Below are positions 6,009 to 18,763 of a stretch of 42,327 nucleotides of DNA, piece after piece. The notes below the pieces were generated by a model. The model was given only the letters and a program-made list of their open reading frames with translations. It had not been told where the DNA came from and did not search any database. The stretch spans positions 1-42,327 of the IMG/VR virus record IMGVR_UViG_3300031952_000040. One strand, given 5' to 3'. The DNA is from a virus. The translations under genes were made by a program, and so were the position numbers. Positions within the stretch are counted from its first letter, which is position 1. Each line of letters begins with the position of its first letter.

Positions 6009-6022
6009 ATAAGGAAAGAACA

Positions 6023-6289: not shown

Positions 6290-6303
6290 ATTAGGAATAC
6301 GCA

Positions 6304-6465: not shown

Positions 6466-6477
6466 TCGTCCGGATCA

Positions 6478-6619: not shown

Positions 6620-6637
6620 ACCTGCCTGCATTCAAAT

Positions 6638-6653: not shown

Positions 6654-6679
6654 CTTACGTCTATTGTACCCTAGTGGGT

Positions 6680-6853
6680 ATGAAAAACATCAAAGACAAA
6701 CTGGAAAGACTGTTGGACGACTTCCGTGAGTGGAAAAGCATCTACGGAAGTCAAGTTCCAGCAGGATACGCTGAACCAAAAGATCGGGCAAACGAACGCA
6801 AAAAGTTCATTGCCGACATTGCTAAACTGAGAGAACAATACTCAATGTTTTGA
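6680..6853 (+). CDS. Small helical protein with nearly leaderless start (57 aa)
   Basis: The ATG at 6680 lies inside the 3' end of the repeat (CCCTAGTGGGT then ATG), with no room for a normal leader. The protein is charged and helical (KDKLERLLDDFREWKSIYG, then RANERKKFIADIAKLREQ), a likely short coiled coil. No family recognised. Confidence 0.6.
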   Translation: MKNIKDKLERLLDDFREWKSIYGSQVPAGYAEPKDRANERKKFIADIAKLREQYSMF

Positions 6854-6856
6854 GTT

Positions 6857-6869
6857 ACCTAGTGGGTGT
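6857..6869 (+). repeat. Half repeat lacking the conserved 5' core
   Basis: ACCTAGTGGGTGT is present but the usual TCCAGTGTACC before it is replaced by unrelated sequence. It overlaps the region just after the stop at 6853. If the core is the promoter, the gene at 6902 depends on the promoter at 6660. Confidence 0.6.
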
Positions 6870-6901
6870 TACGAACAACCTTCAACCCCTGCGAGAAAAA
6901 A

Positions 6902-7288
6902 ATGTCTGCAACAATTGATATTTCTGAGCTTGGTCATTTCACTGGCAGCGAACGATGGTTCCGTCACTGGACTGGTGCCGTTCACTTCACCGAAGGCGTC
7001 CACTACCTTGTGGAACATGGGGCGGCATGGCTGGTCGATGCAATCGCATCGCACCAAACAGGCAAGCTGCTCAAAGGCGATCTGAGAGAGTTTCAGATTT
7101 GGACTCTTGAAGCCAAGGGGCAGAAGGCCGTCCTGACGTGCAAGGCCGACAGCGACCGCAAGCCTGCGGTAACTCAAAACATTGAGTTTACCGACTTCCC
7201 TGATGGCACTGTGACGCTGTACCTTGAATTGGGAAGCATCGACGGCATCAATGAACATCGTGTTCTCATGCTGACGAGCGAACGCTAG
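6902..7288 (+). CDS. DUF6876-like protein (128 aa)
   Basis: ATG 6902 follows the array leader CCCCTGCGAGA. The order FTGSERWFRHW, TEGVHYLVEHGAAWLVDAIASHQ, FQIWTLEAKGQKAVLTC, IEFTDFPDGTVTLYLELG matches DUF6876, widespread in phages and mobile elements and of unknown function. Length is close to the usual for the family. Stop TAG opens the next repeat. Confidence 0.7.
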   Translation: MSATIDISELGHFTGSERWFRHWTGAVHFTEGVHYLVEHGAAWLVDAIASHQTGKLLKGDLREFQIWTLEAKGQKAVLTCKADSDRKPAVTQNIEFTDFPDGTVTLYLELGSIDGINEHRVLMLTSER

Positions 7289-7341
7289 GTCCAGTGTACC
7301 CTAGTGTGTGTAACAACCACTCAACCCTGCGAGACAACGAA

Positions 7342-7710
7342 ATGACCCTGCGAGCCACTGTCGAGATTAGCAGAAAAACCCGTCAAACAATGATGGGTCC
7401 AATGCCAAGTGTGCATTCGGTTGAATACCGATTGAGCATCAACCCCTTCAGGTTACTGCATCGGCATGACTTGCCTGCGTCCCATGAGCTTGAAGATTGG
7501 GAAACTGAGGACGACGTGTGGTTCCGCAAGGACGGCCAAATCTACAACGTCAATGAGTTTTGCAAGATTGGGATGCCACTCATCCCCGGCCCGCATGGTG
7601 GCGCACAAATGGCTTCAAATGGCTACTTTGCCATCGCTGCCTTTGAAGGCAAGGTTTACGGGGTTTCGATTCAAGAGTCGAAGACCTACGGACACGACGA
7701 ACTGAAATAG
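7342..7710 (+). CDS. Hypothetical protein (122 aa)
   Basis: ATG 7342 lies behind the recurrent leader AACCCTGCGAGACAACGAA, identical to the one before 8410. The sequence has aromatic and acidic segments (DWETEDDVWFRKDGQIYNV) and a Gly-rich loop (IPGPHGGAQM). No motif recognised. The stop TAG lies just before the repeat at 7712. Confidence 0.65.
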   Translation: MTLRATVEISRKTRQTMMGPMPSVHSVEYRLSINPFRLLHRHDLPASHELEDWETEDDVWFRKDGQIYNVNEFCKIGMPLIPGPHGGAQMASNGYFAIAAFEGKVYGVSIQESKTYGHDELK

Positions 7711-7745
7711 CTCCAGTGTACCCTAGTGGGTAAGGAGATCAAACC

Positions 7746-8039
7746 ATGCTGACAACTGCGGAACGAATTGAACAAGCGACAGCTTACGGCGTAGGCACCA
7801 AAGCCTATGTTGACACCTTCGGTGGAATGGTCGCTTGTGTAGTCACGGAAATTCACAAGCCGAACGCCAATGGCATTGTCATTGGCCACGACGAATTGAC
7901 CGTGCGAATTGAAGAAACCCGTGGGGGATATACGAAGGGCGAGATCGTCACACGGTCAGCCGCATACACTCCCCCACTAAAGCATCGTATCCTTCGAGGA
8001 TACCACTACCGAATCAACACGGCGTACAAGTACGTCTAG
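7746..8039 (+). CDS. Hypothetical beta-rich protein (97 aa)
   Basis: ATG 7746 follows TAAGGAGATC directly behind a repeat whose GTGT tail is replaced by the SD. The pattern of strands and turns (DTFGGMVACVVTEI, DELTVRIEETRGGYTKGEIV) suggests a small SH3- or KOW-like barrel; this is inference. Its stop TAG lies inside the conserved core of the next repeat (GTC TAG TGTACCC). Confidence 0.65.
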   Translation: MLTTAERIEQATAYGVGTKAYVDTFGGMVACVVTEIHKPNANGIVIGHDELTVRIEETRGGYTKGEIVTRSAAYTPPLKHRILRGYHYRINTAYKYV

Positions 8040-8049
8040 TGTACCCTAC

Positions 8050-8172
8050 ATGGCAACACGCTATGGCTGCTCAAGTGGTGTTGCAGCATTGCTTGAGCAT
8101 AACAACGAGGGTGTACCCTATCGAGAAACGTGTCGTTGCCAACCATTGGAGATTGCACATGGAAGTTTTTGA
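8050..8172 (+). CDS. Possible near-leaderless small protein (40 aa)
   Basis: ATG 8050 immediately follows the repeat core (TGTACCCTAC then ATG), the same geometry as the genes at 6680 and 9862. The product has three Cys (YGCSSGVAALLEHNNEG, then ETCRCQP). It overlaps the next start (8159) in another frame. Geometry is the main support. Confidence 0.4.
   Translation: MATRYGCSSGVAALLEHNNEGVPYRETCRCQPLEIAHGSF
8107..8121 (+). repeat. Degenerate repeat core within 8050-8172
   Basis: GGGTGTACCCTATCG keeps TGTACCCTA but not the flanks. It lies about 40 nt before the ATG at 8159, where a promoter copy would be expected. Confidence 0.35.
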
Positions 8173-8344
8173 ATTCAGAGTCTTTGGAATCACAACAAAA
8201 ATAGAGACGCCAAATATGCGTGTCGTTTTCTGGATTCTGAAATCCTTGGCTGCATCTGGCGAAGCGATCCAAGTCTTGCGTGAGGGTCATTGGATTGATC
8301 TCGAAATCGCAAAGGTAGAAACAAAAAAGAAAAGAGCGGCTTAA
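8159..8344 (+). CDS. Small basic hypothetical protein (61 aa)
   Basis: ATG 8159 has a GGAG SD at 8148-8151. The product is strand-rich (MEVFEFRVFGITTKI, NMRVVFWILKSLAASGEA) with a Lys-rich tail (KVETKKKRAA). Longer in-frame starts inside or near the repeat (8063) are possible but lack an SD. No family recognised. Confidence 0.55.
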   Translation: MEVFEFRVFGITTKIETPNMRVVFWILKSLAASGEAIQVLREGHWIDLEIAKVETKKKRAA

Positions 8345-8409
8345 AAACAATTTAGGTCCAGTGTACCCTAGTGTGTGTAACAACCACTCAACCCTGCGAG
8401 ACAACGATC

Positions 8410-8775
8410 ATGGCCGACTTGAAAGAACAGATTGCTGAGTTTGTGAAGGCCGCTGACGAAGTGTCTGCCGCTTATTGGGAGCGACAGAAATTCACCTTCG
8501 CCAAGCCGACACAACACCGTGCCGACTTCATCAGCGACAAATGGGTGCGTGTCGTGTCTCTGGACGTGCCGCACGAAGGCCCGCCAGTCGTTTCTTCGGT
8601 CTATGCCTTCATTGCCCTGCAAGACGGCCACACGAAGACGCTGGGAGCGATCAAGGCGGGTGACATTCACAAGCCTGCCGGGTTCAAGGCCCCTGCCAAG
8701 CACGCACGGGGCAACGTCTTCGAGGCTGACTTCCGCAAGGCCATCCAGCCAAACGGCATCGTTTACCTGAAGTAA
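8410..8775 (+). CDS. Conserved phage protein of unknown function (121 aa)
   Basis: ATG 8410 follows the leader AACCCTGCGAGACAACGATC. The C-terminal half (KTLGAIKAGDIHKPAGFKA, then PAKHARGNVFEADF and GIVYLK) is a pattern I associate with a common phage and plasmid family without assigned function. It is basic near the end, so nucleic acid binding is possible. A double hairpin follows the stop. Confidence 0.7.
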   Translation: MADLKEQIAEFVKAADEVSAAYWERQKFTFAKPTQHRADFISDKWVRVVSLDVPHEGPPVVSSVYAFIALQDGHTKTLGAIKAGDIHKPAGFKAPAKHARGNVFEADFRKAIQPNGIVYLK

Positions 8776-8780
8776 TACAA

Positions 8781-8841
8781 CGCAGACTAGGCCAGTCTGC
8801 GGGGGAGCCAACGAGCGGCTATGCCAAGCAGGAAACTCCCC
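8781..8841 (+). ncRNA. Double-hairpin 3' UTR element
   Basis: A perfect 7-bp hairpin GCAGACT/AGTCTGC (8781-8799) is followed by a GGGGAG...CTCCCC stem. No T-run and no ORF. It lies between the stop at 8775 and the repeat at 8854; an mRNA-end structure is likely. Confidence 0.4.
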
Positions 8842-8908
8842 TGAAATCACAGGTCCAGTGTACCCTAGTGGGTGTAACGAACAACCTTCCTCAACACGGA
8901 GATTTGCG

Positions 8909-9139
8909 ATGGGTATCACTCTGGTTCCTTCCTACGGTCGTGACTACAAGAACGGCAAAGAAGTCCAAGCGGCCTGGGACGCTGGCAAGGACTTCACGAT
9001 TCAGTCCTTCGGCCACCCGGACGATGGGCGGCAGATCAACAAGCAGGACGCCGAACGTGAAGGCGGCACCTTCAACATCCGGTACAAGAAACTGACCCAG
9101 ATCAAGGTCATCAAGGTCAAGAAGGTCGCTGCGGCTTAG
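8909..9139 (+). CDS. Small conserved phage protein (76 aa)
   Basis: ATG 8909 follows CACGGAGATTTGCG. Sequence TLVPSYGRDYKNGKEV, then AWDAGKDFTIQSFG and GTFNIRYKKLTQ resembles a family of short phage proteins of unknown function, strand-rich and basic at the C-terminus (KVIKVKKVAAA). Stop TAG opens the repeat at 9141. Confidence 0.65.
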   Translation: MGITLVPSYGRDYKNGKEVQAAWDAGKDFTIQSFGHPDDGRQINKQDAEREGGTFNIRYKKLTQIKVIKVKKVAAA

Positions 9140-9162
9140 GTCCAGTGTACCCTATACAGTGT

Positions 9163-9417
9163 AACGCCTCCCAAACAACGGCCTTGGGCAAGCCAATCAA
9201 TCAGAATAAAGGAACCCCTTCCAATGAATGTCTGAAGTCCGCTAACTCCCCGGCGTAGTCATCCACGTTAGAGCGGGGCGGGACTGCAAAGCGATGGCCG
9301 CACGTCAGCAATGGGCAGCATTGTGCTGGCTGACGTGTGAATGAAGTGCCTCCCAAACATTGGCCTTGGGCAAGCCGAAAGCAAATGCGTGGGGCAGGAC
9401 AACCTGCCCTTTTTTTG
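9163..9417 (+). ncRNA. Structured non-coding RNA candidate 2
   Basis: About 250 nt with no ORF between a repeat (9141) and a strong terminator. A 29-nt direct repeat with two mismatches flanks the body (9166-9194 and 9348-9376). Stems inside: AGTCC/GGACT (9236-9240/9281-9285) with CCCCG/CGGGG (9248-9252/9274-9278); a 9-bp stem 9301-9309/9329-9337 topped by CAGCA/TGCTG. Repeat, structured body and terminator together suggest a dedicated RNA gene of unknown class. Confidence 0.55.
9392..9417 (+). terminator. Intrinsic terminator of ncRNA candidate 2
   Basis: GGGCAGG (9392-9398), loop ACAA, CCTGCCC (9403-9409), then eight T-rich bases. A TCTATTG-type repeat follows at 9434. Confidence 0.9.
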
Positions 9418-9471
9418 TTTTTGTTTGCGTAGGTCTATTGTACCCTAGTGGGTGTAACAAGCGAACAACAT

Positions 9472-9609
9472 GGCGGCGTAGCTCAACTGGCTAGAGCAAC
9501 CATCATTATCGTAGCGATTGATCGGGGGTCCACGGTCAATGCGGCCAACGTGTGTACAGCGTTGGTTTGAGAGGATGGGAAGACGGGGGTTCGATGCCCT
9601 CCGCTGTCT
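9472..9609 (+). tRNA. tRNA-like gene with about 70 nt in place of the anticodon loop
   Basis: The ends are convincing: acceptor 9472-9478 pairs with 9602-9608 (two G-U), T8, a D arm with stem GCTC/GAGC and loop AACTGGCTA, and a T arm with stem GGGGG/CCCTC and loop TTCGATG. Between the arms CCATC (9500-9504) pairs with GATGG (9574-9578), but 69 nt lie inside instead of 7. The insert has its own hairpins (ATTGATC/GGTCAAT and CCAACG/CGTTGG). No CCA is encoded. The anticodon cannot be assigned. It could be an intron-bearing tRNA, a tRNA-derived RNA or a decayed tRNA. Confidence 0.5.
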
Positions 9610-9610
9610 G

Positions 9611-9687
9611 CTTACACTGTAGGGCATTTGCCCGAACAACGAGGCGTCAGAACACGCCTACAACCCCGCAAGGGGAGAGTGTGTAAG
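9611..9687 (+). ncRNA. Cloverleaf-like RNA beside the tRNA
   Basis: A 7-bp outer stem (CTTACAC 9611-9617 with GTGTAAG 9681-9687) encloses three hairpins: GGGC-ATTT-GCCC, AGGCGT-CAGAAC-ACGCCT and CCCC-GCAA-GGGG. The four-way layout mimics a tRNA but lacks the TTCGA loop and a normal D loop. It starts two nt after the tRNA-like gene, presumably on the same transcript from the repeat at 9434. Confidence 0.45.
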
Positions 9688-9724
9688 GTAGCCGTAGTGT
9701 ACCCTATGAAGCAGGAGAACAACA

Positions 9725-9856
9725 ATGCGAAAAACTGAAGGGGCAACCAAAGCCCACGCCTCTGTCGGGTATCACAAACACCTTCGACCATTCGGCAAGC
9801 GACTGGCAAACAAAGCCACTCGCAAGAATGGCAAACGTAGCACCAGTGTACCCTAG
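9725..9856 (+). CDS. Small basic protein ending in repeat-encoded residues (43 aa)
   Basis: ATG 9725 follows GCAGGAGAAC behind a variant repeat (CGTAGTGTACCCTATG). The protein is strongly basic (HKHLRPFGKRLANKATRKNGKR), suggesting nucleic acid binding. Its final STSVP and the TAG are encoded by the next repeat itself. Confidence 0.55.
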   Translation: MRKTEGATKAHASVGYHKHLRPFGKRLANKATRKNGKRSTSVP

Positions 9857-9861
9857 TGGGT

Positions 9862-10284
9862 ATGAGACACAGAACACAATTGCAATACTTGGAGGATCGA
9901 GCCGTGTTTGACCATGATATTGGCGAAATACGCAACACGAAGTCGATGGACATGCGGCCCGAAAGCCCTGCGGAATATGTCGAGATGGACAATATCACCA
10001 CTGGCCCCAATGGTATGCAATTGCTGCCAGTGTTCAGCGGTGAAATGTTTCAAAAGTCCGTTGCCTATCCCGTCATCGTGGAAGGATGGGACAAGAAGAG
10101 CGCAGGACGCCACAAACGCCGATGGGAAGCAACATTCACCCAAGCCGAACGGAACAAAATCAGCCGGTATTATGGCCTGTTTTACAAGTGGTATCTGGTC
10201 AGCGGCACGCCCAAACGTGTGTCACTGCAATTGAACACCTTGACCCTCCTGCAAAGGGCAGTGAACTTCTTCGCTGAATGCTAG
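9862..10284 (+). CDS. Hypothetical protein, near-leaderless start (140 aa)
   Basis: ATG 9862 lies at the end of the repeat (CCCTAGTGGGT then ATG), so the mRNA leader would be very short if transcription begins in the repeat. The protein has an acidic N-terminal half and a basic, aromatic C-terminal half (KKSAGRHKRRWEA, ISRYYGLFYKWYLVSG). No family recognised; stop TAG opens the repeat at 10286. Confidence 0.65.
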   Translation: MRHRTQLQYLEDRAVFDHDIGEIRNTKSMDMRPESPAEYVEMDNITTGPNGMQLLPVFSGEMFQKSVAYPVIVEGWDKKSAGRHKRRWEATFTQAERNKISRYYGLFYKWYLVSGTPKRVSLQLNTLTLLQRAVNFFAEC

Positions 10285-10305
10285 GTCCAGTGTACCCTAG
10301 AGGGC

Positions 10306-10599
10306 ATGATGAAAGACGCATACGGAAACGATCAAGTATTTCTGGTCCAGCCAACAACTCTGGACTATGAGATCAGCTATGGTGGCGATGGTGTCAAAAC
10401 ATGCCAAGAGGGACGCTATCGACACTATTTCACCGCCAGTGCTGGCGGCTTGTCGGGCAGCATTAGAATTCAATTGAACCGAGTCAGCGCCGAACGGTTT
10501 GCTGCCTATAACGGCCTGCAATTGATAACCGACGTTGAACGTGAAGAAATTCAAGAAAGGTGGAGCGTCAGAGTGCCGGATTGGTCTAGTGTACCCTAG
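10306..10599 (+). CDS. Hypothetical protein ending in the next repeat (97 aa)
   Basis: ATG 10306 (or adjacent 10309) sits just behind the repeat, again nearly leaderless. The middle (ISYGGDGVKTCQEG, FTASAGGLSGSIRI) looks beta-rich. The last five residues WSSVP and the TAG are read from the repeat at 10585. No family recognised. Confidence 0.6.
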   Translation: MMKDAYGNDQVFLVQPTTLDYEISYGGDGVKTCQEGRYRHYFTASAGGLSGSIRIQLNRVSAERFAAYNGLQLITDVEREEIQERWSVRVPDWSSVP

Positions 10600-10636
10600 A
10601 CGGTGTAACGATCACTCAACCCTGCGGAGAATGACA

Positions 10637-10888
10637 ATGATTCAATTGAAAGTCGTGGCTGTGTCGAGCAACCACAATGCGTTCGGCCTGCGAAACATGA
10701 TCCTCATCGGGGACAATGGCGAAGGCTGGCAAGCTGCGGCCAATGACCTGAACGTGAAGCCGAAGGATACCATCCTGCGGATACCCGAAGGGCAGGATAT
10801 TCCCACGTTCCTGACGCTGCAATCCTTTGAGATTCCGTCACAACTCGAAGACCCGCCTGCTAAACTATTGAAAGAAGTTTGGGGCTAG
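10637..10888 (+). CDS. Hypothetical protein (83 aa)
   Basis: ATG 10637 has SD GGAG with 7-nt spacing; ATG 10631 would overlap the SD. The protein begins MIQLKVVAVSSNHNAFGLR and contains a plausible beta-barrel pattern (NMILIGDNGEGWQA). It follows the array leader motif ACTCAACCCTGCG. No family recognised. Confidence 0.6.
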   Translation: MIQLKVVAVSSNHNAFGLRNMILIGDNGEGWQAAANDLNVKPKDTILRIPEGQDIPTFLTLQSFEIPSQLEDPPAKLLKEVWG

Positions 10889-10946
10889 GTCCAGTGTACC
10901 CTAGAGGGTGTAAGGAACACTTCAGTCCTCTGCGAAAGGCAATGCG

Positions 10947-11282
10947 ATGTTGAGCCACAAAATTGCGATTTACATTCCTTCCACTGTCAACGGCAATCAA
11001 CCCGCCCCGGTTGATATGATCGAACGGTGGGTGCGGGCCAGCAAGATCAAGCTGGCCAACCTGTTTGGTGGGTTTACGACCTACAACGGGCAAGGGGGAT
11101 GGTATTCGCCCGAACACGGCTTGATCGAAGAGAACGTGATTATCGTTCAAGCGTTCACCGATCAAGAGGGGCTGACCAAACTGGACAAAGTGAACGAACT
11201 GGCGAAGGAAATCGCCAGCGACATGGGCCAGGAAATGGTGTCTGTCGAAGTCGATGGAACACTCAACTTCGTGACAGCGTAA
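10947..11282 (+). CDS. Hypothetical protein (111 aa)
   Basis: ATG 10947 follows CGAAAGGCAATGCG. The sequence (KIAIYIPSTVNGNQPA, FGGFTTYNGQGGWYSPEHGLIEENVIIVQAFTD) resembles a family of about 110-residue bacterial and phage proteins predicted to adopt a ferredoxin-like fold, with unknown role. The gene ends its transcription unit. Confidence 0.65.
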   Translation: MLSHKIAIYIPSTVNGNQPAPVDMIERWVRASKIKLANLFGGFTTYNGQGGWYSPEHGLIEENVIIVQAFTDQEGLTKLDKVNELAKEIASDMGQEMVSVEVDGTLNFVTA

Positions 11283-11288
11283 GGCAGG

Positions 11289-11316
11289 GACGGGCAGCAA
11301 TGCCCGTCTTTTTTTT
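11289..11316 (+). terminator. Intrinsic terminator
   Basis: GACGGGC (11289-11295), loop AGCAAT, GCCCGTC (11302-11308), then eight T. A T-rich spacer (GTTTATGTTTAGG) leads straight to a TCTATTG-type repeat at 11330. Confidence 0.92.
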
Positions 11317-11381
11317 GTTTATGTTTAGGTCTATTGTACCCTAGTGGGTGTGAAGGACAAACACCTATGCGAGACAAAGCT

Positions 11382-11540
11382 ATGACCCGAACTGCAATCA
11401 TGAAATTGCCTGCATGGAAACGCCGTAGGTTTCCATATAAGCCTCGTCCGGGGGCTGTAGAGGTTCAACCAGTCAATTGGTTGGATCATTTGCAGGATGT
11501 TCTATCTGGACTAAAGGTCAAAGCCGACAACTACCGATAG
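11382..11540 (+). CDS. Small basic hypothetical protein (52 aa)
   Basis: ATG 11382 is preceded by GCGAGACAAAGCT, the position of the SD-like leader in other cassettes; ATG 11367 is an alternative. Sequence LPAWKRRRFPYKPRPGAVEV is strongly basic and Pro-rich, followed by a helical tail. Stop TAG opens the next repeat. Confidence 0.5.
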   Translation: MTRTAIMKLPAWKRRRFPYKPRPGAVEVQPVNWLDHLQDVLSGLKVKADNYR

Positions 11541-11594
11541 GTCCAGTGTACCCTAGTGGGTGTAAGGAACACTTCACCCCCTGCGAGATAAGCT

Positions 11595-11780
11595 ATGCCG
11601 AAGAAAATGGATCATGCCGCCTACCAACGTGGCCTGCGGTCGAAGTCGCCTGCTGAACTGAACTTCATTGCGAATGACGCCAACGAAGCCTCCACGGTCA
11701 ACCCGCAAGGCGAAAACGCTGGATACTATGCCGACGAAGTGCATTATGCACTCGCCGAACTCAAACGCCGCCAAGGATGA
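11595..11780 (+). CDS. Small hypothetical protein (61 aa)
   Basis: ATG 11595 follows CCCCCTGCGAGATAAGCT. The product (MDHAAYQRGLRSKSPAELNFIANDANEA, then GYYADEVHYALAELKRR) is mostly helical and resembles short phage proteins of unknown function. It is followed after 4 nt by a lipoprotein gene, the only clear two-gene unit without an intervening repeat in this part. Confidence 0.65.
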   Translation: MPKKMDHAAYQRGLRSKSPAELNFIANDANEASTVNPQGENAGYYADEVHYALAELKRRQG

Positions 11781-11784
11781 AAAC

Positions 11785-11973
11785 ATGAAGCTGGCAATCA
11801 TAGCGGTCGCATTCCTCCTGTTCGGAGGATGCGCCGCTCCAAGACAATGGGAAAGCCCCCGTGAGCATTGTGAAGCTCCCCGTGAGCATTACCACCGGGA
11901 ACTAAGCGTCGAAATTCGGGAGAATGGCGATGGCCGTACCCAAGTCGTCGCTACGTTCAAAATCACCAACTAG
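11785..11973 (+). CDS. Small lipoprotein (62 aa)
   Basis: A signal peptide MKLAIIAVAFLLFGGC ends in a lipobox (LFGGC), so the mature protein would be lipid-anchored at Cys16. The short mature part contains an imperfect repeat (SPREHC, APREHY) and a strand-like C-terminus. Phage lipoproteins often block receptors or superinfection, or act in lysis; which applies here is unknown. The SD is weak and translation may be coupled to the gene 4 nt upstream. Confidence 0.7.
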   Translation: MKLAIIAVAFLLFGGCAAPRQWESPREHCEAPREHYHRELSVEIRENGDGRTQVVATFKITN

Positions 11974-11997
11974 GTCCAGTGTACCCTATAAGGTGTG

Positions 11998-12057
11998 GTA
12001 AGTTTGGGCGTGGGGGCCGGGTGAAATATCCCGGCCCCTGCAAGCCCAATCTCACAA
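11998..12057 (+). promoter_or_regulatory. 60-nt two-tier hairpin leader element, copy 1
   Basis: Identical over 60 nt to 13853-13912. TTGGGC/GCCCAA encloses a 9-bp GGGGCCGGG/CCCGGCCCC stem with loop TGAAATAT. It sits between a repeat and the SD of the following gene, so it is a 5' UTR structure, perhaps a protein- or ligand-binding element. Confidence 0.8.
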
Positions 12058-12083
12058 GGACACCAACAAAAAGGAGACAAACC

Positions 12084-12269
12084 ATGTACGCAACGACCGC
12101 ACGAAAGGACAACCAGAAAACAACAATCGTTCTGCCACCTCTTCCACCGTGGGAAGTGGCGAAGGGACACCAACAACACCGTGGCGGGGCAGGCACACAC
12201 GCCGACCGCCGCACGAACCGTCAGCGGACACGAGCAACCCAACAACGGGCTGCTCTGTCAGATGACTGA
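12084..12269 (+). CDS. Small basic conserved phage protein (61 aa)
   Basis: ATG 12084 has a strong AAGGAG SD and lies 26 nt behind the duplicated hairpin element. The C-terminal half (HRGGAGTHADRRTNRQRTR) is Arg-rich and resembles a short protein common in phages and mobile elements, function unknown. RNA or DNA binding is likely from charge. Confidence 0.6.
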   Translation: MYATTARKDNQKTTIVLPPLPPWEVAKGHQQHRGGAGTHADRRTNRQRTRATQQRAALSDD

Positions 12270-12283
12270 AAGGCACCGGCAAG

Positions 12284-12343
12284 GTGCTGGCGGGCGAAAT
12301 CCCCCACGACATCGAAGGTGATGTCGTGGTCATCACCATTTAG
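12284..12343 (+). pseudogene. Probable C-terminal gene remnant (19 codons)
   Basis: An in-frame stretch reading LAGEIPHDIEGDVVVITI ends at a TAG directly before the repeat at 12345. It looks like the end of a real beta-rich protein but lacks an N-terminus; a GTG at 12284 is the only start. It may be the remains of a cassette lost by recombination. Confidence 0.35.
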
Positions 12344-12397
12344 CCCTAGTGTACCCTATAGGGTGTGATGGAACGAAACTTTCAACGGAGAACTGCG

Positions 12398-12631
12398 ATG
12401 GCTAACGGTTGGCACGAAGACTTTGAAGACGAAACCTCCCCGCCCGAACTGCTCGAAGATTGGAGCGAACTCGAAGAAGACTTCGATGACGAGTTCGAGG
12501 ATGACGAGTTTGAGGATGACGACGGCGAACTGGCCCGTGACCTCATCCTCGAACGTCAGGAACTCACAGACTTCGAGGGCGATGCCTTCAATGACCACTA
12601 CGACTACGACGGAGGCGACTACGAAGGCTAA
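12398..12631 (+). CDS. Highly acidic small protein (77 aa)
   Basis: ATG 12398 follows ACGGAGAACTGCG. About half the residues are Asp or Glu (LEDWSELEEDFDDEFEDDEF), giving a large negative charge, as in DNA-mimic or anti-restriction proteins; that role is only an analogy. The end contains AFNDHYDYD, encoded by 28 nt identical to part of the gene at 5097. A terminator follows. Confidence 0.65.
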   Translation: MANGWHEDFEDETSPPELLEDWSELEEDFDDEFEDDEFEDDDGELARDLILERQELTDFEGDAFNDHYDYDGGDYEG

Positions 12632-12638
12632 GGGCAAC

Positions 12639-12672
12639 GAAGGACAGGGAAAGCCTCCCTGTCCTTCTTCTT
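12639..12672 (+). terminator. Intrinsic terminator
   Basis: A perfect 11-bp stem GAAGGACAGGG/CCCTGTCCTTC (12639-12649/12657-12667) is followed by TTCTTTC. A TCTATTG-type repeat begins at 12689. Confidence 0.88.
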
Positions 12673-12749
12673 TCTGAGTTTGTGTAGGTCTATTGTACCC
12701 TAGTGGGTGTGTCGAAGAGAACGAAACCTGTTTACTCTGGAGAACTGCA

Positions 12750-12938
12750 ATGGCTGTGTCTGCGACCATCGAAGGCAACGAACTCGTGATTCGCCTTCCT
12801 CTCAACCCGCCTCGGCCCAGCGCCACGGGCAAGACGCTCGTGGTTGCCACGAGCAGCGGCAACAAGGCAACCGAAGCCGTAGTCAACGGCCAGCAAGTCG
12901 TTGTCGGCGTCAACGCCTACATCTACCCGCCCAAATAG
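12750..12938 (+). CDS. Small conserved beta-rich protein (62 aa)
   Basis: ATG 12750 follows CTGGAGAACTGCA. The sequence IEGNELVIRLPLNPPRPSA, GKTLVVATSSGNKAT, QQVVVGVNAYIYPPK recalls a widespread short bacterial and phage family of unknown function. Its 3' end and downstream region are duplicated at 5909-6008. Confidence 0.7.
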   Translation: MAVSATIEGNELVIRLPLNPPRPSATGKTLVVATSSGNKATEAVVNGQQVVVGVNAYIYPPK

Positions 12939-13012
12939 TCAACGAAAGGCAACACTAGGGTACGTCCAGTGTACCCTAGTGGGTGTTGAGATCAATCATC
13001 TTCACTCAAGGA
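12909..13012 (+). repeat. 100-bp duplication, copy B
   Basis: Counterpart of 5909-6008. Here it includes the natural 3' end of an intact gene, so this copy is probably the donor. It contains the inverted half-repeat and the direct repeat (12965) forming an 11-bp palindrome. Confidence 0.85.
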
Positions 13013-13018
13013 TCGACC

Positions 13019-13255
13019 ATGCGAGTATTGGCTAAGACGTTCGGCTGGCTTGTCGTCAGCGGGCTTATCATCTTCATCAGCAACCTGAGCGCTGGGGTCG
13101 ATTGGAAAGTCGCCCTTGTCGGGGCCGCTGTTGCGAAGATCGCCACGACCATTGCCTACTTCTTCTATGAAGTCGGCTTCGAGAAGGCGTGGCAACGTCA
13201 GCCAAAGGCAACGACGGTCACGGCAACGGCAACACCATGCCCTTGCCCTGCTTAG
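13019..13255 (+). CDS. DUF2061-like small membrane protein (78 aa)
   Basis: ATG 13019 is preceded by AAGGATCGACC. Two hydrophobic segments (about residues 8-24 and 30-50) are followed by YFFYEVGFEKAW, recalling the DUF2061 pattern in which a membrane hairpin ends in HE-x-x-W. The Thr- and Cys-rich tail (TATPCPCPA) is unusual. Function of the family is unknown; an inner-membrane location is predicted. Confidence 0.55.
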   Translation: MRVLAKTFGWLVVSGLIIFISNLSAGVDWKVALVGAAVAKIATTIAYFFYEVGFEKAWQRQPKATTVTATATPCPCPA

Positions 13256-13323
13256 GGCTAGTGTACCCTAGAGGGTGTCCAACACGGACGAACGACAACC
13301 CCCTGCGAATGAGGAACTGAGTT

Positions 13324-13731
13324 ATGGCCACTACTGAAGTCAAGCTGGTATCGGAAATCATCGAAGCTGTCCCCGGTGTCAAGCGTGCGTTCCACGTCTT
13401 CACCCCGGCCCTTCAGTATCGCCTTGAGAATAACGCCAGCAACCTGCCAGTGATGGCCCTGCGGTCTTCAATCCACAACTATGGCAAGATGAAGCTCTAC
13501 GCTCGCATCGAATGCCTTGGGCCTTCCAGCCTTGACCCGCTGTTCGGCAACCCGCTGCCCGGCACGGGTGGCCGTGGCGTGGCAATCATGTTCACCGAAT
13601 TCCCCCTGCGGGTTTGGTATCCTGAAGGACAAAAGCCCCCGGCAGTTGACACGCCGGACGGACGCAACCCGAAGGAGATACTTGAGGAAGTCAAGCTCAA
13701 GTATGAACTCGCATTCTACGACGATTTCTAA
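13324..13731 (+). CDS. Hypothetical protein (135 aa)
   Basis: ATG 13324 lies 45 nt behind a repeat, with the leader CCCCCTGCGAATGAGGAACTGAG. Mixed alpha/beta composition with a Gly/Pro-rich middle (GNPLPGTGGRGVAIMF) and an acidic end. Codon choice and SD support it; no family recognised. A strong terminator follows 7 nt after the stop. Confidence 0.65.
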   Translation: MATTEVKLVSEIIEAVPGVKRAFHVFTPALQYRLENNASNLPVMALRSSIHNYGKMKLYARIECLGPSSLDPLFGNPLPGTGGRGVAIMFTEFPLRVWYPEGQKPPAVDTPDGRNPKEILEEVKLKYELAFYDDF

Positions 13732-13738
13732 TCGTCAA

Positions 13739-13770
13739 GAAAGGGCAGCAAGTCGCTGCCCTTTCTTTTT
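13739..13770 (+). terminator. Intrinsic terminator
   Basis: A perfect 11-bp stem GAAAGGGCAGC/GCTGCCCTTTC (13739-13749/13755-13765) then TTTTTG. The spacer GTTTATGTTTGTGTAGG leads to a TCTATTG-type repeat at 13788, matching the cassette seen at 11330. Confidence 0.92.
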
Positions 13771-13852
13771 GTTTATGTTTGTGTAGGTCTATTGTACCCT
13801 AGAGGGTGGCTGGTTGCGGTGAGTGAGTCATGCTCACAACAGGCCCGTGGCA

Positions 13853-13912
13853 GTAAGTTTGGGCGTGGGGGCCGGGTGAAATATCCCGGCCCCTGCAAGC
13901 CCAATCTCACAA
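13853..13912 (+). promoter_or_regulatory. 60-nt two-tier hairpin leader element, copy 2
   Basis: Identical to 11998-12057. It is 44 nt behind the repeat at 13788 and 14 nt before the next ATG, again in a 5' UTR. Confidence 0.8.
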
Positions 13913-13926
13913 AGCAAAGGAATACT

Positions 13927-14130
13927 ATGTCAGGGACTTGGATCATTTCTAAGATCATTCAAGTGAGGATGCGTAACTCGTCAGACGTACTGGACCTGAT
14001 TACGGCACCCAAGAGAATCACGAACAAAGAAGCTGTTGTCGTCGGAGAAACTTACGACGGAAAAGGATACCAGTGTGCGTATTCTTACGATGGAGACCGT
14101 TTCGGACTGTTTGAAATCGAACCTTACTGA
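13927..14130 (+). CDS. Small hypothetical protein (67 aa)
   Basis: ATG 13927 follows AAAGGAATACT behind the duplicated hairpin. Strand-rich sequence (TWIISKIIQVRMRNSS, NKEAVVVGETYDGKGYQCAYSYDGDRFGLFEI) resembles a small beta-barrel. Followed after 13 nt by another gene with its own SD and no repeat between, so the two form an operon. Confidence 0.6.
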   Translation: MSGTWIISKIIQVRMRNSSDVLDLITAPKRITNKEAVVVGETYDGKGYQCAYSYDGDRFGLFEIEPY

Positions 14131-14143
14131 GAGGAGAATTACG

Positions 14144-14350
14144 ATGAGAGATCAATTCAGGAATTATGATCGTTGGAAGTTGAGTAACCGAGAAGATGAA
14201 GAGGATACTGAGAATGCTCGTCTTCAACGTGAAGAGGATATGATGGAGAGGGCTGACGAGGAGAATGATCGAGCAAAGGATGAGGGCCACAACAACGGGC
14301 AAGGGATTCAAGAAGGGCGACCGAGCCAAGGCAAAGGCCGATGCTCGTAG
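14144..14350 (+). CDS. Small highly charged protein (68 aa)
   Basis: ATG 14144 follows GAGGAGAA. It is helical with alternating acidic and basic residues (KLSNREDEEDTENARLQREED), with a Gly- and Lys-rich tail. A coiled coil is likely. The stop TAG opens the repeat at 14352. Confidence 0.55.
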   Translation: MRDQFRNYDRWKLSNREDEEDTENARLQREEDMMERADEENDRAKDEGHNNGQGIQEGRPSQGKGRCS

Positions 14351-14403
14351 GTCCAGTGTACCCTAGTGAGTGTACGAACAACCTCAGAACGGGAGACACT
14401 GCG

Positions 14404-14643
14404 ATGCAATACAACCAACTGACCGATCCTCAACGTGATGCCGTGGCCGCATGGGAGACGGAACACAACGACAACAACGAATACGAGTTTAGCGATAACC
14501 GTCGCTATGCTGTGCCAGAGCAGGCCGAGCAGGTTGCAGCCTATGCCGCAATCAAGGACGATGGCTGCTGTGGCTTCTGCGATGTCGAACTGCAATGCAG
14601 CGATGGCAGCACGCTATGGTATGGCTTCAACTATGGCCACTGA
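14404..14643 (+). CDS. Small Cys-containing hypothetical protein (79 aa)
   Basis: ATG 14404 follows GGGAGACACTGCG. Acidic N-terminal half (WETEHNDNNEYEFSDNRR), then a Cys cluster (DGCCGFCDVELQCSDG) that could bind a metal. It is the last protein gene of the repeat array; a repeat and a hairpin terminator follow. Confidence 0.6.
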   Translation: MQYNQLTDPQRDAVAAWETEHNDNNEYEFSDNRRYAVPEQAEQVAAYAAIKDDGCCGFCDVELQCSDGSTLWYGFNYGH

Positions 14644-14678
14644 TGGTGGCGTAGGTCTAGTGTACCCTATGGTGCATA

Positions 14679-14709
14679 GTGCATGGCATAGACCATGCAC
14701 TTCTTTGTT
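14679..14709 (+). terminator. Probable terminator closing the array
   Basis: GTGCATG (14679-14685) pairs with CATGCAC (14694-14700) and is followed by TTCTTTGTTC. The stem is only 7 bp, so strength is uncertain. Confidence 0.5.
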
Positions 14710-14718
14710 CAATTAAAC

Positions 14719-14734
14719 ATAGGGTACAATAGAC
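14719..14734 (-). promoter_or_regulatory. Inverted TCTATTG-type repeat copy
   Basis: On the minus strand this reads GTCTATTGTACCCTAT. It faces the end of the array. With the copy at 14782-14800 it forms a tandem minus-strand pair, and no minus-strand gene of plausible quality lies immediately downstream. Confidence 0.75.
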
Positions 14735-14781
14735 ATAACAATGTTGCATAAATAAAAATAAAACAATTATGCGAGAAAACA

Positions 14782-14800
14782 TTGGGTACAATAGACCTAG
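14782..14800 (-). promoter_or_regulatory. Inverted TCTATTG-type repeat copy
   Basis: On the minus strand this reads CTAGGTCTATTGTACCCAA, a near-perfect strong-type core. A leftward transcript from here would cross the inverted copy at 14719 and run antisense into the array. Confidence 0.75.
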
Positions 14801-15076
14801 CCACCCCCTCCCCCACGCTATGACTGTGTTTTCCTTTTAATGTCCAAAAGAAAAATTCTGGCCGGGGAAAACAAAAATCGCAAATCGGCAATTTTGAGTA
14901 TGTCCTGGTGCGATTTTGACTTTTTGTGTAAGGCCATCCCGAAAAAAATCGCCGGGGCAAAAATTCTGGCCCTGGTAGGGTTAAATGGCGGGGCCTCTAC
15001 AGTTTAGACATGGACGGCGAACGCATGGTGTTCAGTCCGGTCGTTCAATAAATCCCACATATTTTTTTTTCATTCA

Positions 15077-15082
15077 TATAAT
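15077..15082 (+). promoter_or_regulatory. Possible TATAAT -10 box
   Basis: A perfect TATAAT lies 38 nt before the GTG start at 15121, behind a ten-T tract. No good TTGACA-like -35 is seen at the right distance. Confidence 0.35.
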
Positions 15083-15120
15083 GGTTTATCCAGCGGACCA
15101 TATATGAACGGGCATTTACA

Positions 15121-15420
15121 GTGGTGTATTTTTTGAAGGAACGAAGATTTCGTGGCAACATCAAAATCGGTTATTCAACCATTACAAGAAACAGAGTTTC
15201 TGAATTGCAGGTTGGAAATTCCCAAGAATTGCAAGTTCTATTGGTTGCCGAAGGAGACAGAGGCACAGAAAGTGCCTTACACAATAAGTTCAAGCGATTA
15301 AAAGTTCGTGGAGAGTGGTTCAAGGCTGACAAAGAACTGCTTGACTTCATTGAAGAATTGAAGATGGCTGGACTATGTTTAGTCCAGCCATCTTCACCAT
15401 TCAGAATGGTTGGAATTTAA
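15121..15420 (+). CDS. GIY-YIG-family nuclease, T5orf172/MUG113-like (99 aa)
   Basis: The order VYFL, then IKIGYST, RVSELQVGNSQELQVLLV, E..LHNKFK and RGEWFKAD matches the T5orf172/MUG113 branch of GIY-YIG endonuclease domains: VYF is the degenerate first motif, Glu of TESALH the metal ligand. Such domains make DNA nicks or breaks and are common in phages as free-standing nucleases. Start is GTG 15121; no in-frame ATG exists upstream. The last 15 codons overlap a strong hairpin, and the stop overlaps that of the convergent gene. Confidence 0.75.
   Translation: MVYFLKERRFRGNIKIGYSTITRNRVSELQVGNSQELQVLLVAEGDRGTESALHNKFKRLKVRGEWFKADKELLDFIEELKMAGLCLVQPSSPFRMVGI
15361..15394. terminator. 15-bp perfect hairpin inside the 3' end of the nuclease gene
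   Basis: Positions 15361-15375 pair perfectly with 15380-15394 around TGTT. It lies between convergent genes and could end transcripts from both sides, although neither side has a long T-run. Confidence 0.6.
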
Positions 15421-16679
15421 CCAACGTCCCTGGCTTGTCCCAAAGTTCCATACTGAGGAAGATATTGGTGCAGCTTGGTGACAGCGACCTGAAGCGACTC
15501 CAAATTACTGCGAAGGGTGTGATTGTCCACACTGTTGGCCTGATATGGCCTTCGCTTCGCCGCCGAGTCCCCAATAGCATTCAGTTCTTCTTCCAATGCC
15601 TTCACCTTTTTGGCGAGGGCATTGTCTTGATGCGACTCTTTGAGATAGTTCCAAGCATCTTGGGCGGGAGAAACACTCTTGGTGGGCTTGCCCCGTCCAC
15701 CACGAACAGTCACGACCACCGGATTGCGTTGGAGTTTTTCCAACACCTTCTCTCCATAAGTCGTGTTGGCTTCACGAATAGCCGGAGCTACGATTCCATC
15801 ACAATGGCGACAATCCGTCACCTTGTTGTCTCGGATCAGTCCGACCAACCAGTTGAAGTCTGTCACTTGTCCAGCAATGTCGTCAACCTCATGAGGATGA
15901 GGAACTTTGGGATTGGCCGGACGACGCTGCGTCGGATCGAACTCTCTGAGTTCTGGAGAATATCCAAAGTGAGAGATCAACGTGGGAACGTAGGCGTGGT
16001 GGAATTTACTCCACTGAGTAATGTCATCCAGACCAGACTTCTCGTACCAGATATAACTGTGAATGTATTTCATAGCGGCCTGTTCCGACTGGAACTGAAA
16101 GTTGACCACGATCTTCTTCATGTCCCAGCCGAACTCCGTCAAAGCACGGGTTGCTTCTTTCGCTTTGGCGTAGCTGGCCCATTCCATAGGCCCAGCGATA
16201 TGCCGTTGGGACACAATGGAGAAGATTTGTTCGGCGGTCGTTTCGTTTGGGTAAACGACACACACAGCATCGCCCAGATGGGCGTGACGACGATTGCCTT
16301 CAATGACAACCTTATTGCACAGCCAGAGAGATTCATTCTGACCACCGTGGAGTTCAATACTGGACTCCAGTTGCTTTGAACCTTTCGCCAACTGAGAGTT
16401 TTCTGCTCCGTTGAGTTCGCCTCTCAGGTATTGCTTGATCCGCTTTTGGCCTGCTGCGGTCAGATTCCCATTGATCTTGGCTTTTTCAGCCGCCAGCAAT
16501 CGGGGGTTGTTCGGATCGGTCTTTCTCTCCTCTTCTGCGACCGTAGCAATCAAGACCGGGAGGGTTACTCCCAAGACATGCGTTTCATAGCATCCATGAA
16601 CCTCTTTGAACGGTCCAGTGAAGCGGAAATTGCCAACGCTTACGTCGCCATTTCGGTGAAGCTGCCATTTTTGAGCCAT
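15417..16679 (-). CDS. ParB/Srx-like domain protein (420 aa)
   Basis: ATG 16679 follows GAAAGAGG; a longer in-frame start 17 codons upstream lacks an SD. Residues about 105-175 contain IEGNRRHAHLGD, then ETTAEQIFSIVSQRHIAGPMEW, the signature of ParB N-terminal-like proteins that bind nucleotide and DNA. An HTH-like part and a C-terminal helical region (KKVKALEEELNAIGD) follow. Phage ParB-like proteins can be nucleases, partition or regulatory factors; which is not clear. It lies next to the DNA methyltransferase on the same strand. Confidence 0.65.
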   Translation of the reverse strand: MAQKWQLHRNGDVSVGNFRFTGPFKEVHGCYETHVLGVTLPVLIATVAEEERKTDPNNPRLLAAEKAKINGNLTAAGQKRIKQYLRGELNGAENSQLAKGSKQLESSIELHGGQNESLWLCNKVVIEGNRRHAHLGDAVCVVYPNETTAEQIFSIVSQRHIAGPMEWASYAKAKEATRALTEFGWDMKKIVVNFQFQSEQAAMKYIHSYIWYEKSGLDDITQWSKFHHAYVPTLISHFGYSPELREFDPTQRRPANPKVPHPHEVDDIAGQVTDFNWLVGLIRDNKVTDCRHCDGIVAPAIREANTTYGEKVLEKLQRNPVVVTVRGGRGKPTKSVSPAQDAWNYLKESHQDNALAKKVKALEEELNAIGDSAAKRRPYQANSVDNHTLRSNLESLQVAVTKLHQYLPQYGTLGQARDVG

Positions 16680-16747
16680 TTTTCGATTCCTCTTTCTTGT
16701 CTGTGAAGTTCGCCGCAGGAACACCTCCAATCAGCGTCATGCCGGAA

Positions 16748-17605
16748 CTATACCACTGGAAAAGACTGCTGTAAAGCAGAAGAAGAAGAATTTTGCATCT
16801 GAATTCTGGAGTTTGCCAAAGAAACATACGTTTCAGATTGATCGAACCCGACGTAGTTTCTGCCGTAACTTATTGCAGACAAAGCAGTCTGACCACTTCC
16901 CATGAACGGGTCCAGCACCAAATCCCCTGGTTTGGAAAATGTTTGAATCAACGCATCTGCGATTCCATTTGGAAACATGGCTGGGTGCATGACGCCCTTG
17001 GGCAGAGAACCAACCGCCACTGTAATTACGTCGGAAATTCGACTGGTTCCCGCTTTTAGCTGTTTGATTTGACCATTTGCGGCGATAACTCCTTCGCCAA
17101 ATCTTTCTGATCCCGCAAATCCACCAGTTCGGACAGAACTTTTGTTCCCACAAGCATACAAGTCTATGAACGGCTTGGAACTTTGGGAAAACCAATGAAT
17201 TGATTCCCAAGTGCGTCTAGGTCGAATGTTACTCCCCAAAGGTGGGGCGTCAGGCTTGTACCAAATGAGTTCGTCACATTCCTTCCAGCCATTTTCTCTA
17301 AGGGCGAGTCTGGTGCGGAGTGTGTAATCCGAAATTTGCCCATCTCTAAGATGAGGGCGAATTACGATAAAAACAGAAGCGTCAGGTTTTAATTTAGGTT
17401 TGAGAGCCGACATCCAAGAAACTGTCCATGCGGGAAATTCTGATTCCTTCACTCCTGAGTAAAGGACTGCTCCCGTCGAGGAGTCTCCACTTCTTTGATT
17501 TGCATATGGGGGAGAAGTAACACATAGCCCAATAGATTGATCGTCCAGATTTTTAATTAGGTCTACGCAGTCGCCGCAAATTAACTGATTCATATATTTC
17601 ATCAT
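16748..17605 (-). CDS. DNA methyltransferase, beta class (N4-cytosine or N6-adenine)
   Basis: A 285-residue SAM-dependent methyltransferase. Catalytic motif IV TSPPY is at residues 30-34, and the SAM-binding motif I DPFMGSGQT comes near the C-terminus (about residue 232), the IV-before-I order of beta-class enzymes; YVGFDQS fits motif II. It would modify phage DNA, probably against host restriction; no cognate restriction enzyme is adjacent. The start overlaps the stop of the upstream gene (ATGA), indicating coupling; an internal ATG at codon 5 is an alternative. Confidence 0.88.
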   Translation of the reverse strand: MMKYMNQLICGDCVDLIKNLDDQSIGLCVTSPPYANQRSGDSSTGAVLYSGVKESEFPAWTVSWMSALKPKLKPDASVFIVIRPHLRDGQISDYTLRTRLALRENGWKECDELIWYKPDAPPLGSNIRPRRTWESIHWFSQSSKPFIDLYACGNKSSVRTGGFAGSERFGEGVIAANGQIKQLKAGTSRISDVITVAVGSLPKGVMHPAMFPNGIADALIQTFSKPGDLVLDPFMGSGQTALSAISYGRNYVGFDQSETYVSLANSRIQMQNSSSSALQQSFPVV

Positions 17606-18201
17606 GCAATATATGAATAATCAGAAACATTTTTCATGTAGAGGTTTTTATTTTTTATTTCGGCTTCTTTCCACTTCTTAACAAGCCATTCGGCCCGGAA
17701 TTTGGCGTTGTAGTCCTTCAAGGTGTTTTCTTCTTCGTTTCGCAATACATCCTCATCCCACCAACGCTTGATTCTCTTTGGTTCTGGCTTTGGGTCCAGG
17801 AGTTCCGGCTGCATGTCTTCAGAGAATACAGCATCGTGCATAGGGACGAGTTCGGCAGGTGGAAAGATGGTGTACCAAGGCTTCTCAGGCACACCATCAG
17901 GGAAGTTATTGTAGAAGCTCCCGATTTCATGCTCTAGTCTGCGTTTAATCGCACCACAATACATCTCTGGGTTGTTGAAGTAGTCATTGCCACACCAAGG
18001 CCGTCTCCAGTCTTCTTTCAAAGCCCAATTCCGCATGTGTCCATCAATGTCTGGCAGCTTCTTTTCAGATCGCTTCTGGGAAATCTTCTGATCGGCTTCC
18101 TGCATATATTCGTCAACGTCTACAACCTTGTTGATACGGTTCTTGGCGATATGGGCATCAGCATTTTTGAAATAGTCGTTGTAATCAATCGGTTTGCTCA
18201 T
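17602..18201 (-). CDS. Hypothetical protein, paralogue of the adjacent gene (199 aa)
   Basis: ATG 18201 follows GAAAGGAAAAAG and lies 17 nt inside the end of the upstream gene. It shares a skeleton with that gene: DYNDYFKNADAHIAKNRI near the N-terminus, then ELVPMHDAVF and KRWWDEDVL. The motif DYMDxxxKxADxHIA is repeated within this protein (DVDEYMQEADQKISQKR). The function is unknown. The paralogues and the methyltransferase form one overlapping operon. Confidence 0.7.
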   Translation of the reverse strand: MSKPIDYNDYFKNADAHIAKNRINKVVDVDEYMQEADQKISQKRSEKKLPDIDGHMRNWALKEDWRRPWCGNDYFNNPEMYCGAIKRRLEHEIGSFYNNFPDGVPEKPWYTIFPPAELVPMHDAVFSEDMQPELLDPKPEPKRIKRWWDEDVLRNEEENTLKDYNAKFRAEWLVKKWKEAEIKNKNLYMKNVSDYSYIA

Positions 18202-18763
18202 CTTTTTCCTTTCTGTTAAAGTAATATTCAACTTTCTCGTCAATGGTGGCCCACATTCCTGGTTTATGCCGGAATTCATCCTCAATGACATCATGATCCC
18301 ACCAAAACTTCTCGTGAACTGGCGTCCGAAGCTCCGCATCCTGCACTTCTTCGTCTTTTGGAAAGATTGCATCATGCAAAGGCAACAAGTCCGCTGGAAG
18401 TCCAGTAACTTGCGTCAAGGCATCATAAATTAGACTTTTGTTTTCACGCTTCAATACTTCTGGATTGTCTTTCACGGTATCGTGTAGGAAATGGGTGGGC
18501 TGGGGAGCATCAGAGACGGCGACGGCAAACTTGCGGAACTTCTCTTCAACCGGAGGCACTTCAGAAGTTTCTTTGATTCGCTTCCGAGCGATGTGTTTGT
18601 CTGCTTTCTTGAAGAATTCATCGTAATCTTCGGTGGGCTTTCCAAAGTTTCGATTGTCAAATTCCCGTGGCGTGATTGGATTTGAATAATAGCCAGAGCC
18701 AATAGTGCTGCCACTATAAGAAGTCACAGTATTAGATGGCGAGAACCCTTTTAATATTGTCAT
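18185..18763 (-). CDS. Hypothetical protein, paralogue of the adjacent gene (192 aa)
   Basis: ATG 18763 follows GGGAGAAG. It has a Ser/Gly-rich N-terminal 40 residues absent from its neighbour, then DYDEFFKKADKHIARKRIK, DLLPLHDAIF and KFWWDHDVIED. Tandem duplication followed by divergence is the likely origin. The acidic, Trp-containing C-terminal half may bind a partner. No family recognised. Confidence 0.7.
   Translation of the reverse strand: MTILKGFSPSNTVTSYSGSTIGSGYYSNPITPREFDNRNFGKPTEDYDEFFKKADKHIARKRIKETSEVPPVEEKFRKFAVAVSDAPQPTHFLHDTVKDNPEVLKRENKSLIYDALTQVTGLPADLLPLHDAIFPKDEEVQDAELRTPVHEKFWWDHDVIEDEFRHKPGMWATIDEKVEYYFNRKEKDEQTD

What the first reader, a model, noticed from the sequence alone, without database searches (positions are those of the whole stretch)
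11998..13912. Perfect 60-nt duplicated two-tier hairpin in two 5' UTRs
Seen: 11998-12057 and 13853-13912 are identical although their surroundings are not. Each can form TTGGGC/GCCCAA around a 9-bp GC stem with loop TGAAATAT and each lies between a repeat and the SD of a different small gene. Identity over 60 nt in non-coding DNA suggests recent copying or strong constraint; a riboswitch-like or protein-bound control element is possible.
Basis: partly seen in the sequence, partly recalled or inferred. Interest (0 to 1): 0.6.

Follow-up and report, generated by a model that had tools for sequence, protein, structure and literature searches.

The report
Freshly copied hairpin in phage leaders
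A large virus of bacteria carries two identical 58-letter hairpins in front of two small genes; relatives show that one of them was recently dropped, cleanly and as a unit, into the loop of an older hairpin, which makes it a small copied piece of leader sequence rather than an ancient control switch.

Summary
In detail: 11998-12057 and 13853-13912 are identical, each can fold into a strong two-tier hairpin, and each lies between a promoter-like repeat and the SD of a different small gene. The window is a fragment of a large phage. Two relatives in IMG/VR (a 340-kb record with 96% identical terminase, a 46-kb record with 75%) have the locus of copy 1 WITHOUT the hairpin. Copy 1 is a clean 58-nt insertion (11998-12055), with no target duplication and unambiguous ends, into the loop of an older leader hairpin (GGTGT-GAARG-ACACC) that both relatives keep. 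Copy 2 sits in a segment absent from both relatives, which replaced most of a native small gene. No homologue was found in IMG/VR, GTDB genomes, phage or plasmid records, or Rfam, and no Y1/RAYT transposase or reverse transcriptase in the three records. So this is not a conserved riboswitch but a recently copied palindromic unit in a hypervariable array of small genes, where leaders are often duplicated and a minority form repeat-anchored hairpins (stems of 8 bp or more: 27 of 157, against 10.8 +/- 2.7 expected). The likely effect is a longer structured leader, perhaps stabilising mRNA. Copying mechanism and function are inferred.

The parts
11998..12055 (+). Copy 1 of the 58-nt palindromic unit: a clean insertion relative to both relatives; two-tier hairpin
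13853..13910 (+). Copy 2 of the 58-nt unit, in a segment absent from both relatives
11992..12064 (+). Older leader hairpin GGTGT(11992-11996)...ACACC(12060-12064); its loop G|AARG is the insertion site
11971..11996 (+). Promoter-like repeat upstream of copy 1
13784..13809 (+). Promoter-like repeat upstream of copy 2 (43 nt before the hairpin)
12084..12269 (+). 61-aa small gene downstream of copy 1; matching DNA in place in both relatives; no family
13927..14130 (+). 67-aa small gene downstream of copy 2; no relative found
13811..14295 (+). Segment without counterpart in either relative; its gene part (13911-14295) has G+C 0.447 against a mean of 0.53 in the array
14296..14350 (+). 3' remnant, no longer joined to its start, of a native small gene that is intact in both relatives

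Best explanation
The 60-nt identity is a recently copied 58-nt palindromic unit in the hypervariable small-gene array of a large phage. SHOWN: two identical copies; copy 1 is a clean insertion, without target duplication, into the loop of an older 5'-leader hairpin kept by two relatives; copy 2 lies in a segment foreign to both relatives. INFERRED: the unit came in with, or sat in, the foreign segment at copy 2 and was copied about 1.9 kb to copy 1 as a folded single strand during phage replication, either by template switching between hairpin-prone sites or by an enzyme acting in trans, its ends being set by the palindrome. INFERRED: transcribed from the repeat upstream, it gives the mRNA a long structured 5' leader that ends about 14 nt (copy 1) or 5 nt (copy 2) before the SD, so it is tolerated by translation and may shield the 5' end from decay, like other leader hairpins of this array. 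My confidence below is for the copied-unit reading; for the stabilising role alone I would say about 0.35.
For:: window 11538-11997 and 12056-12277 align to consecutive stretches of G002 (gap 58 against 0). G001 also lacks the unit at the same base. The empty site is GGTGTG|AARGACACC, and the ends cannot be slid; copy 2's segment (13811-14295) has no counterpart, and a native gene is cut down to a 3' remnant; a covariance model finds the unit only in the window (4 rows = 2 places on both strands), 0 in G001 and G002; the filled leader is predicted to keep the GGUGU/ACACC stem around the unit; repeat-anchored stems of at least 8 bp in 27 of 157 leaders, swapped control 10.8 +/- 2.7, largest of 300 swaps 17; compensatory pair changes in two orthologous leader hairpins (T-A to C-G; G-C to A-T); other leader segments are also duplicated perfectly (89, 55 nt).
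Against: Only two copies are known, and the rest of this phage genome is not held. No transposase of the Y1 type and no reverse transcriptase was found. Only 4 of the 6 outermost base pairs match (chance 0.038), so 'ends set by the palindrome' is weak. On average leaders are LESS structured than the rest of the array once G+C is allowed for, so hairpins are not a general rule here. The unit's G+C (0.62) does not match the low-G+C segment around copy 2. No expression data.
Confidence: 0.6

Rival explanations
1. A chance templated insertion: during replication or break repair the polymerase copied 58 nt from copy 2 into copy 1 (or the reverse) and returned at the shared AA. There is no element and no function.
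For: AA is shared at the right junction of both copies; the array shows other perfect leader duplications; only two copies exist in what is held.
Against: No microhomology at the left junction; the copied stretch is exactly the hairpin with 6 nt on either side of its strong outer stem; it landed in a hairpin loop, in the same leader position and orientation.
Confidence: 0.22
2. A conserved regulatory RNA (riboswitch or protein-bound leader) shared by two genes of one regulon.
For: Same position and orientation in two leaders, very stable fold.
Against: Absent from the same leader in both relatives although the gene and even the older leader hairpin are kept; no homologue or Rfam match; no variation between copies, so no covariation to support it.
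Confidence: 0.08
3. A host-derived REP-like or miniature element moved in trans by a host tyrosine (IS200/IS605-type) transposase.
For: Short palindrome, no target duplication, insertion at a hairpin, the same two bases on one side. REPs are thought to be moved by RAYTs (PMC3733652, abstract and other passages seen).
Against: No GTAG or CGTC tag at the ends; longer than the 20-40 bp of REPs; no relative in 84,980 species genomes by two patterns (0; 16 stretches, which share no such hairpin when folded); no Y1 transposase in G000, G001 or G002.
Confidence: 0.1

Closest known systems
PeSL elements (promoter-early stem-loops) of T4-type phages (Arbiol 2010, Comeau 2014; content recalled, papers not held; their titles seen in reference lists)
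   Same: Repeated promoter-like motifs with stem-loops between small, exchangeable genes in a hypervariable block; segments between them are shuffled
   Different: The 58-nt unit has no promoter and no T tail, and inserted without homology; the repeats here do not score as sigma-70 promoters on the + strand
REP / RAYT palindromes (PMC3733652, passages seen)
   Same: Short mobile palindrome in non-coding DNA, folds as RNA, carries no gene
   Different: 58 nt, no GTAG/CGTC tag, two copies, no RAYT found
5'-terminal stabilising stem-loops of bacterial mRNAs such as ompA and papA (PMC3997798, passages and reference titles seen)
   Same: Structured leader upstream of an SD that stays free
   Different: Here recently inserted; no decay data

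Membership tests
Riboswitch or other Rfam family | Match to a curated family | tested here: not met
   0 matches at gathering score in the window
Conserved cis-regulatory RNA | Kept with its gene in relatives, with covariation | tested here: not met
   absent from both relatives at the orthologous gene
Intrinsic terminator | GC stem followed by a T run | tested here: not met
   not listed on either strand; right flanks AAGG and AAAG
REP/RAYT element | GTAG or CGTC tag at one end | tested here: not met
   ends are GTAAG and CTCAC; definition from PMC3733652
REP/RAYT element | Y1 tyrosine transposase present | tested here: inconclusive
   0 of 3 records, but the records may be fragments and the host is unknown
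REP/RAYT element | High copy number in the genome | tested here: inconclusive
   2 copies in 42 kb; the rest of the genome is not held
PeSL | Repeated promoter-like motif between small exchangeable genes | tested here: met
   33 repeats in the window, gene blocks gained or lost between relatives (feature recalled; it is met by the array, not by the 58-nt unit itself)
PeSL | sigma-70 early promoter plus stem-loop terminator in one motif | tested here: not met
   (10000-15000 only): no + strand sigma-70 match at the repeats; terminators precede only some repeats (feature recalled)
5' mRNA stabiliser | Deletion shortens mRNA half-life | not testable with these tools
   needs an experiment

The most novel reading that the evidence does not exclude
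A class of tiny (about 58 nt) gene-less hairpin elements that move within large phages by inserting, without target duplication, into the loops of existing leader hairpins, so that new 5'-leader structures are grafted onto small early-type genes.
Probability: 0.15. Interest if true: 0.7.

Novelty: new variant of a known kind. Interest (0 to 1): 0.4.

Why it matters
Filled and empty sites in close relatives catch a leader hairpin in the act of spreading, and show how large phages may rebuild the 5' leaders of their small genes. If further copies exist, this would be a very small mobile DNA and would make hairpin-to-hairpin movement testable.

Tried and rejected
Homologue searches that led nowhere: exact core in viral contigs, 0; stem-shape pattern, 2 contigs, both different GC hairpins without the outer arms; end pattern in genome contigs and viral contigs, 0 and 0; arm pattern in genome contigs, 16 stretches, read and folded, judged chance, and in viral contigs, 0; blastn in phages, 1 weak match inside a terminase gene of a Vibrio phage at E 0.1, and in plasmids, none.

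Mobility enzymes: Y1 transposase and reverse transcriptase, 0 of 3 records each. Terminator reading rejected. Coding reading (both copies are open in the frame of the downstream gene) rejected, because an SD and ATG follow each hairpin and the relatives lack copy 1. The idea that all leaders of the array are hairpins was rejected (leaders less structured on average). Donor of copy 2's segment: no relative of the 67-aa protein. Literature: the listings showed no paper on such an element; the two PeSL papers are not held.

Full report
WHAT IS THERE. The two 60-nt stretches are identical (11998-12057, 13853-13912), with 0 expected by chance. Each can fold as described, at -39.5 kcal/mol as RNA (z -6.8) and -19.8 as DNA (z -6.0). 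Both are on the + strand, between a promoter-like repeat and the SD of a small gene. No Rfam family matches anywhere in the window at gathering score.

WHERE IT LIES. The window is a virus record of IMG/VR. It encodes a large terminase, a tyrosyl-tRNA synthetase, a tRNA nucleotidyltransferase and a DNA methyltransferase. Its first 14.7 kb is an array of small genes, most of them behind the repeat TAGGTCYAKTGTACCCTANNNGGTGT: 33 matches of the core at up to 2 mismatches against 0.41 expected, all on the + strand. Scans with the repeat core and with the terminase found the same two relatives: G002, a 340,341-base record (terminase 96% identical), and G001, a 46,388-base record (75%). They hold 41 and 33 core matches at up to one mismatch, again on one strand, in one block before the terminase. 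Gene blocks between repeats are gained and lost between the three.

COPY 1 IS A CLEAN INSERTION. Window 11538-11997 aligns to L014 9594-10036 and window 12056-12277 to L014 10037-10260, so the 58 nt 11998-12055 are missing in G002 with nothing else lost. G001 lacks them at the same base. The ends cannot be slid, because the first and last letters differ from the flanks; there is no target duplication. The empty site reads GGTGTG|AAGGACACC in G002 and GGTGTG|AAAGACACC in G001. It is itself a small leader hairpin, GGTGT-GAARG-ACACC, so the unit sits in the loop of an older hairpin, and the filled leader is predicted to keep the old stem around the new one. Since two relatives at unequal distance share the empty state, gain in the window's lineage is the simple reading.

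COPY 2. The stretch 13811-14295 has no counterpart in either relative; only its right border, from 14296, matches (a 16-base match elsewhere in G002 at E 0.16 is chance). There the relatives have an intact small gene (MKKKHRNDKNHGR... in G002), of which the window keeps only a 3' remnant. The part 13911-14295 has G+C 0.447, against a mean of 0.530 (sd 0.027, smallest 0.449) in 385-nt windows of the array up to about 13.4 kb. So copy 2 is in or beside acquired DNA. Which copy gave rise to the other is not shown.

ENDS. The six bases on either side of the strong outer stem pair at 4 of 6 places (chance 0.038), so the unit may be a palindrome to its very ends, but this is weak. The right flanks of both copies begin with AA; the left flanks differ.

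NO KIN FOUND. Exact core, stem-shape, end and arm patterns gave no relative in IMG/VR or in 84,980 species genomes. Blastn found nothing meaningful in 50,697 phage and 72,556 plasmid records. A covariance model gave the two window places only, and none in G001 or G002. These searches demand near-exact letters, except the model, which was run only on three records. Y1 transposase and reverse transcriptase: 0 of 3 records each.

LEADER HAIRPINS IN THIS ARRAY. For 157 repeat cores (TGTACCCT) in the window, 36 kb of G002 and all of G001, I scored the longest stem between the repeat's 3' half and the next 45 nt. Stems of 8 bp or more: 27, against 10.8 +/- 2.7 when downstream parts are swapped within a phage (largest of 300: 17). 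At 7 bp or more: 42 against 25.8 (largest 37). At 6 bp or more the excess (72 against 57.6) is within the range of swaps (largest 76). Orthologous leaders are counted up to three times, so cases are not independent. Two orthologous hairpins show a compensatory pair change: T-A to C-G (window 3968 / G001 16031) and G-C to A-T (G002, position 30802 of the joined part / G001 26870); these were read by eye from the sequences and folds, and the alignment does not put the second arm of G001 in register. Against a general rule: leaders as a whole are less structured than the rest of the array after allowing for G+C (difference +0.9 to +1.0 kcal/mol, p 0.003 to 0.012). So a minority of leaders carry hairpins that look selected, and the 58-nt unit adds to that set.

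OTHER COPYING IN THE ARRAY. The window also has perfect repeats of 89 nt (5920, 12924) and 55 nt (7286, 8353), both with the promoter-like repeat in them. Copying of leader pieces is thus usual here; what is unusual is a piece without the repeat, inserted without homology at its left end.

HOW IT MAY WORK. Most likely the unit was copied as a folded single strand during replication and now forms a structured 5' leader that leaves the SD free; 5' stem-loops can stabilise bacterial mRNAs because RNase E and RppH need a single-stranded end (PMC3997798, passages seen). No expression, binding or decay evidence exists. It is not a terminator: no T run, and the scan lists terminators at 11286, 12639 and 13737, each just before a repeat, but not this hairpin.

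AGAINST THE KNOWN. It shares its setting with PeSL elements of T4-type phages (recalled; papers not held) and its form with REP palindromes (PMC3733652, passages seen), but fails the tag test of REPs and the promoter/terminator make-up of PeSLs. I file it as a new variant of short mobile palindromes, with the mobility mechanism open.

Noticed in passing
window 1-14700; G002 about 267000-293000; G001 about 3300-27300: One-strand array of small genes behind repeats with core TGTACCCTANNNGGTGT. The repeat's upstream half is mostly GGTCYAK in the window and G002 but GTGTMAK in G001 (output partly cut): concerted change of dozens of copies, or co-evolution with a binding factor.
   Followed up: partly
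window 11326, 12685, 13784 and others: The repeat has two flavours: TCTATTG, often after an intrinsic terminator, and TCCAGTG, often directly at a stop codon; G001 shows a similar split (TAATTG, TCAGTG). Seen by eye.
   Followed up: no
window 5920-6008 and 12924-13012; 7286-7340 and 8353-8407: Perfect 89-nt and 55-nt duplications across repeat and leader.
   Followed up: no
window 14976-18213: About 3.2 kb absent from G002 at this place, with a GIY-YIG-like (T5orf172/MUG113) gene at 15121-15420 and a DNA methyltransferase at 16748-17605.
   Followed up: no
L013:10848-10905 and L015:7519-7579: In G002 and G001 a strong two-tier leader hairpin whose outer stem (CTCCCC/GGGGAG) appears to include the SD of the next gene; no upstream repeat seen close by.
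   Followed up: no
window 9470-9560 (kin: G001 from 21452): tRNA-like stretch (GTAGCTCAACTGGCTAGAGCA, later GGGGGTCCACGGTCAATG) inside a cassette; ARAGORN calls no tRNA in the window.
   Followed up: partly
L016:9691-9765; L015:3254 and 3527: ARAGORN predicts a tRNA with a four-base anticodon (tcag) in G001; a tRNA-Glu is duplicated in tandem there.
   Followed up: no
window 6638-6674: The repeat and its inverted copy face each other as a near-perfect palindrome.
   Followed up: no
window 34665-34763: 15-nt tandem repeat in a coding gene giving a run of NAPMQ units.
   Followed up: no
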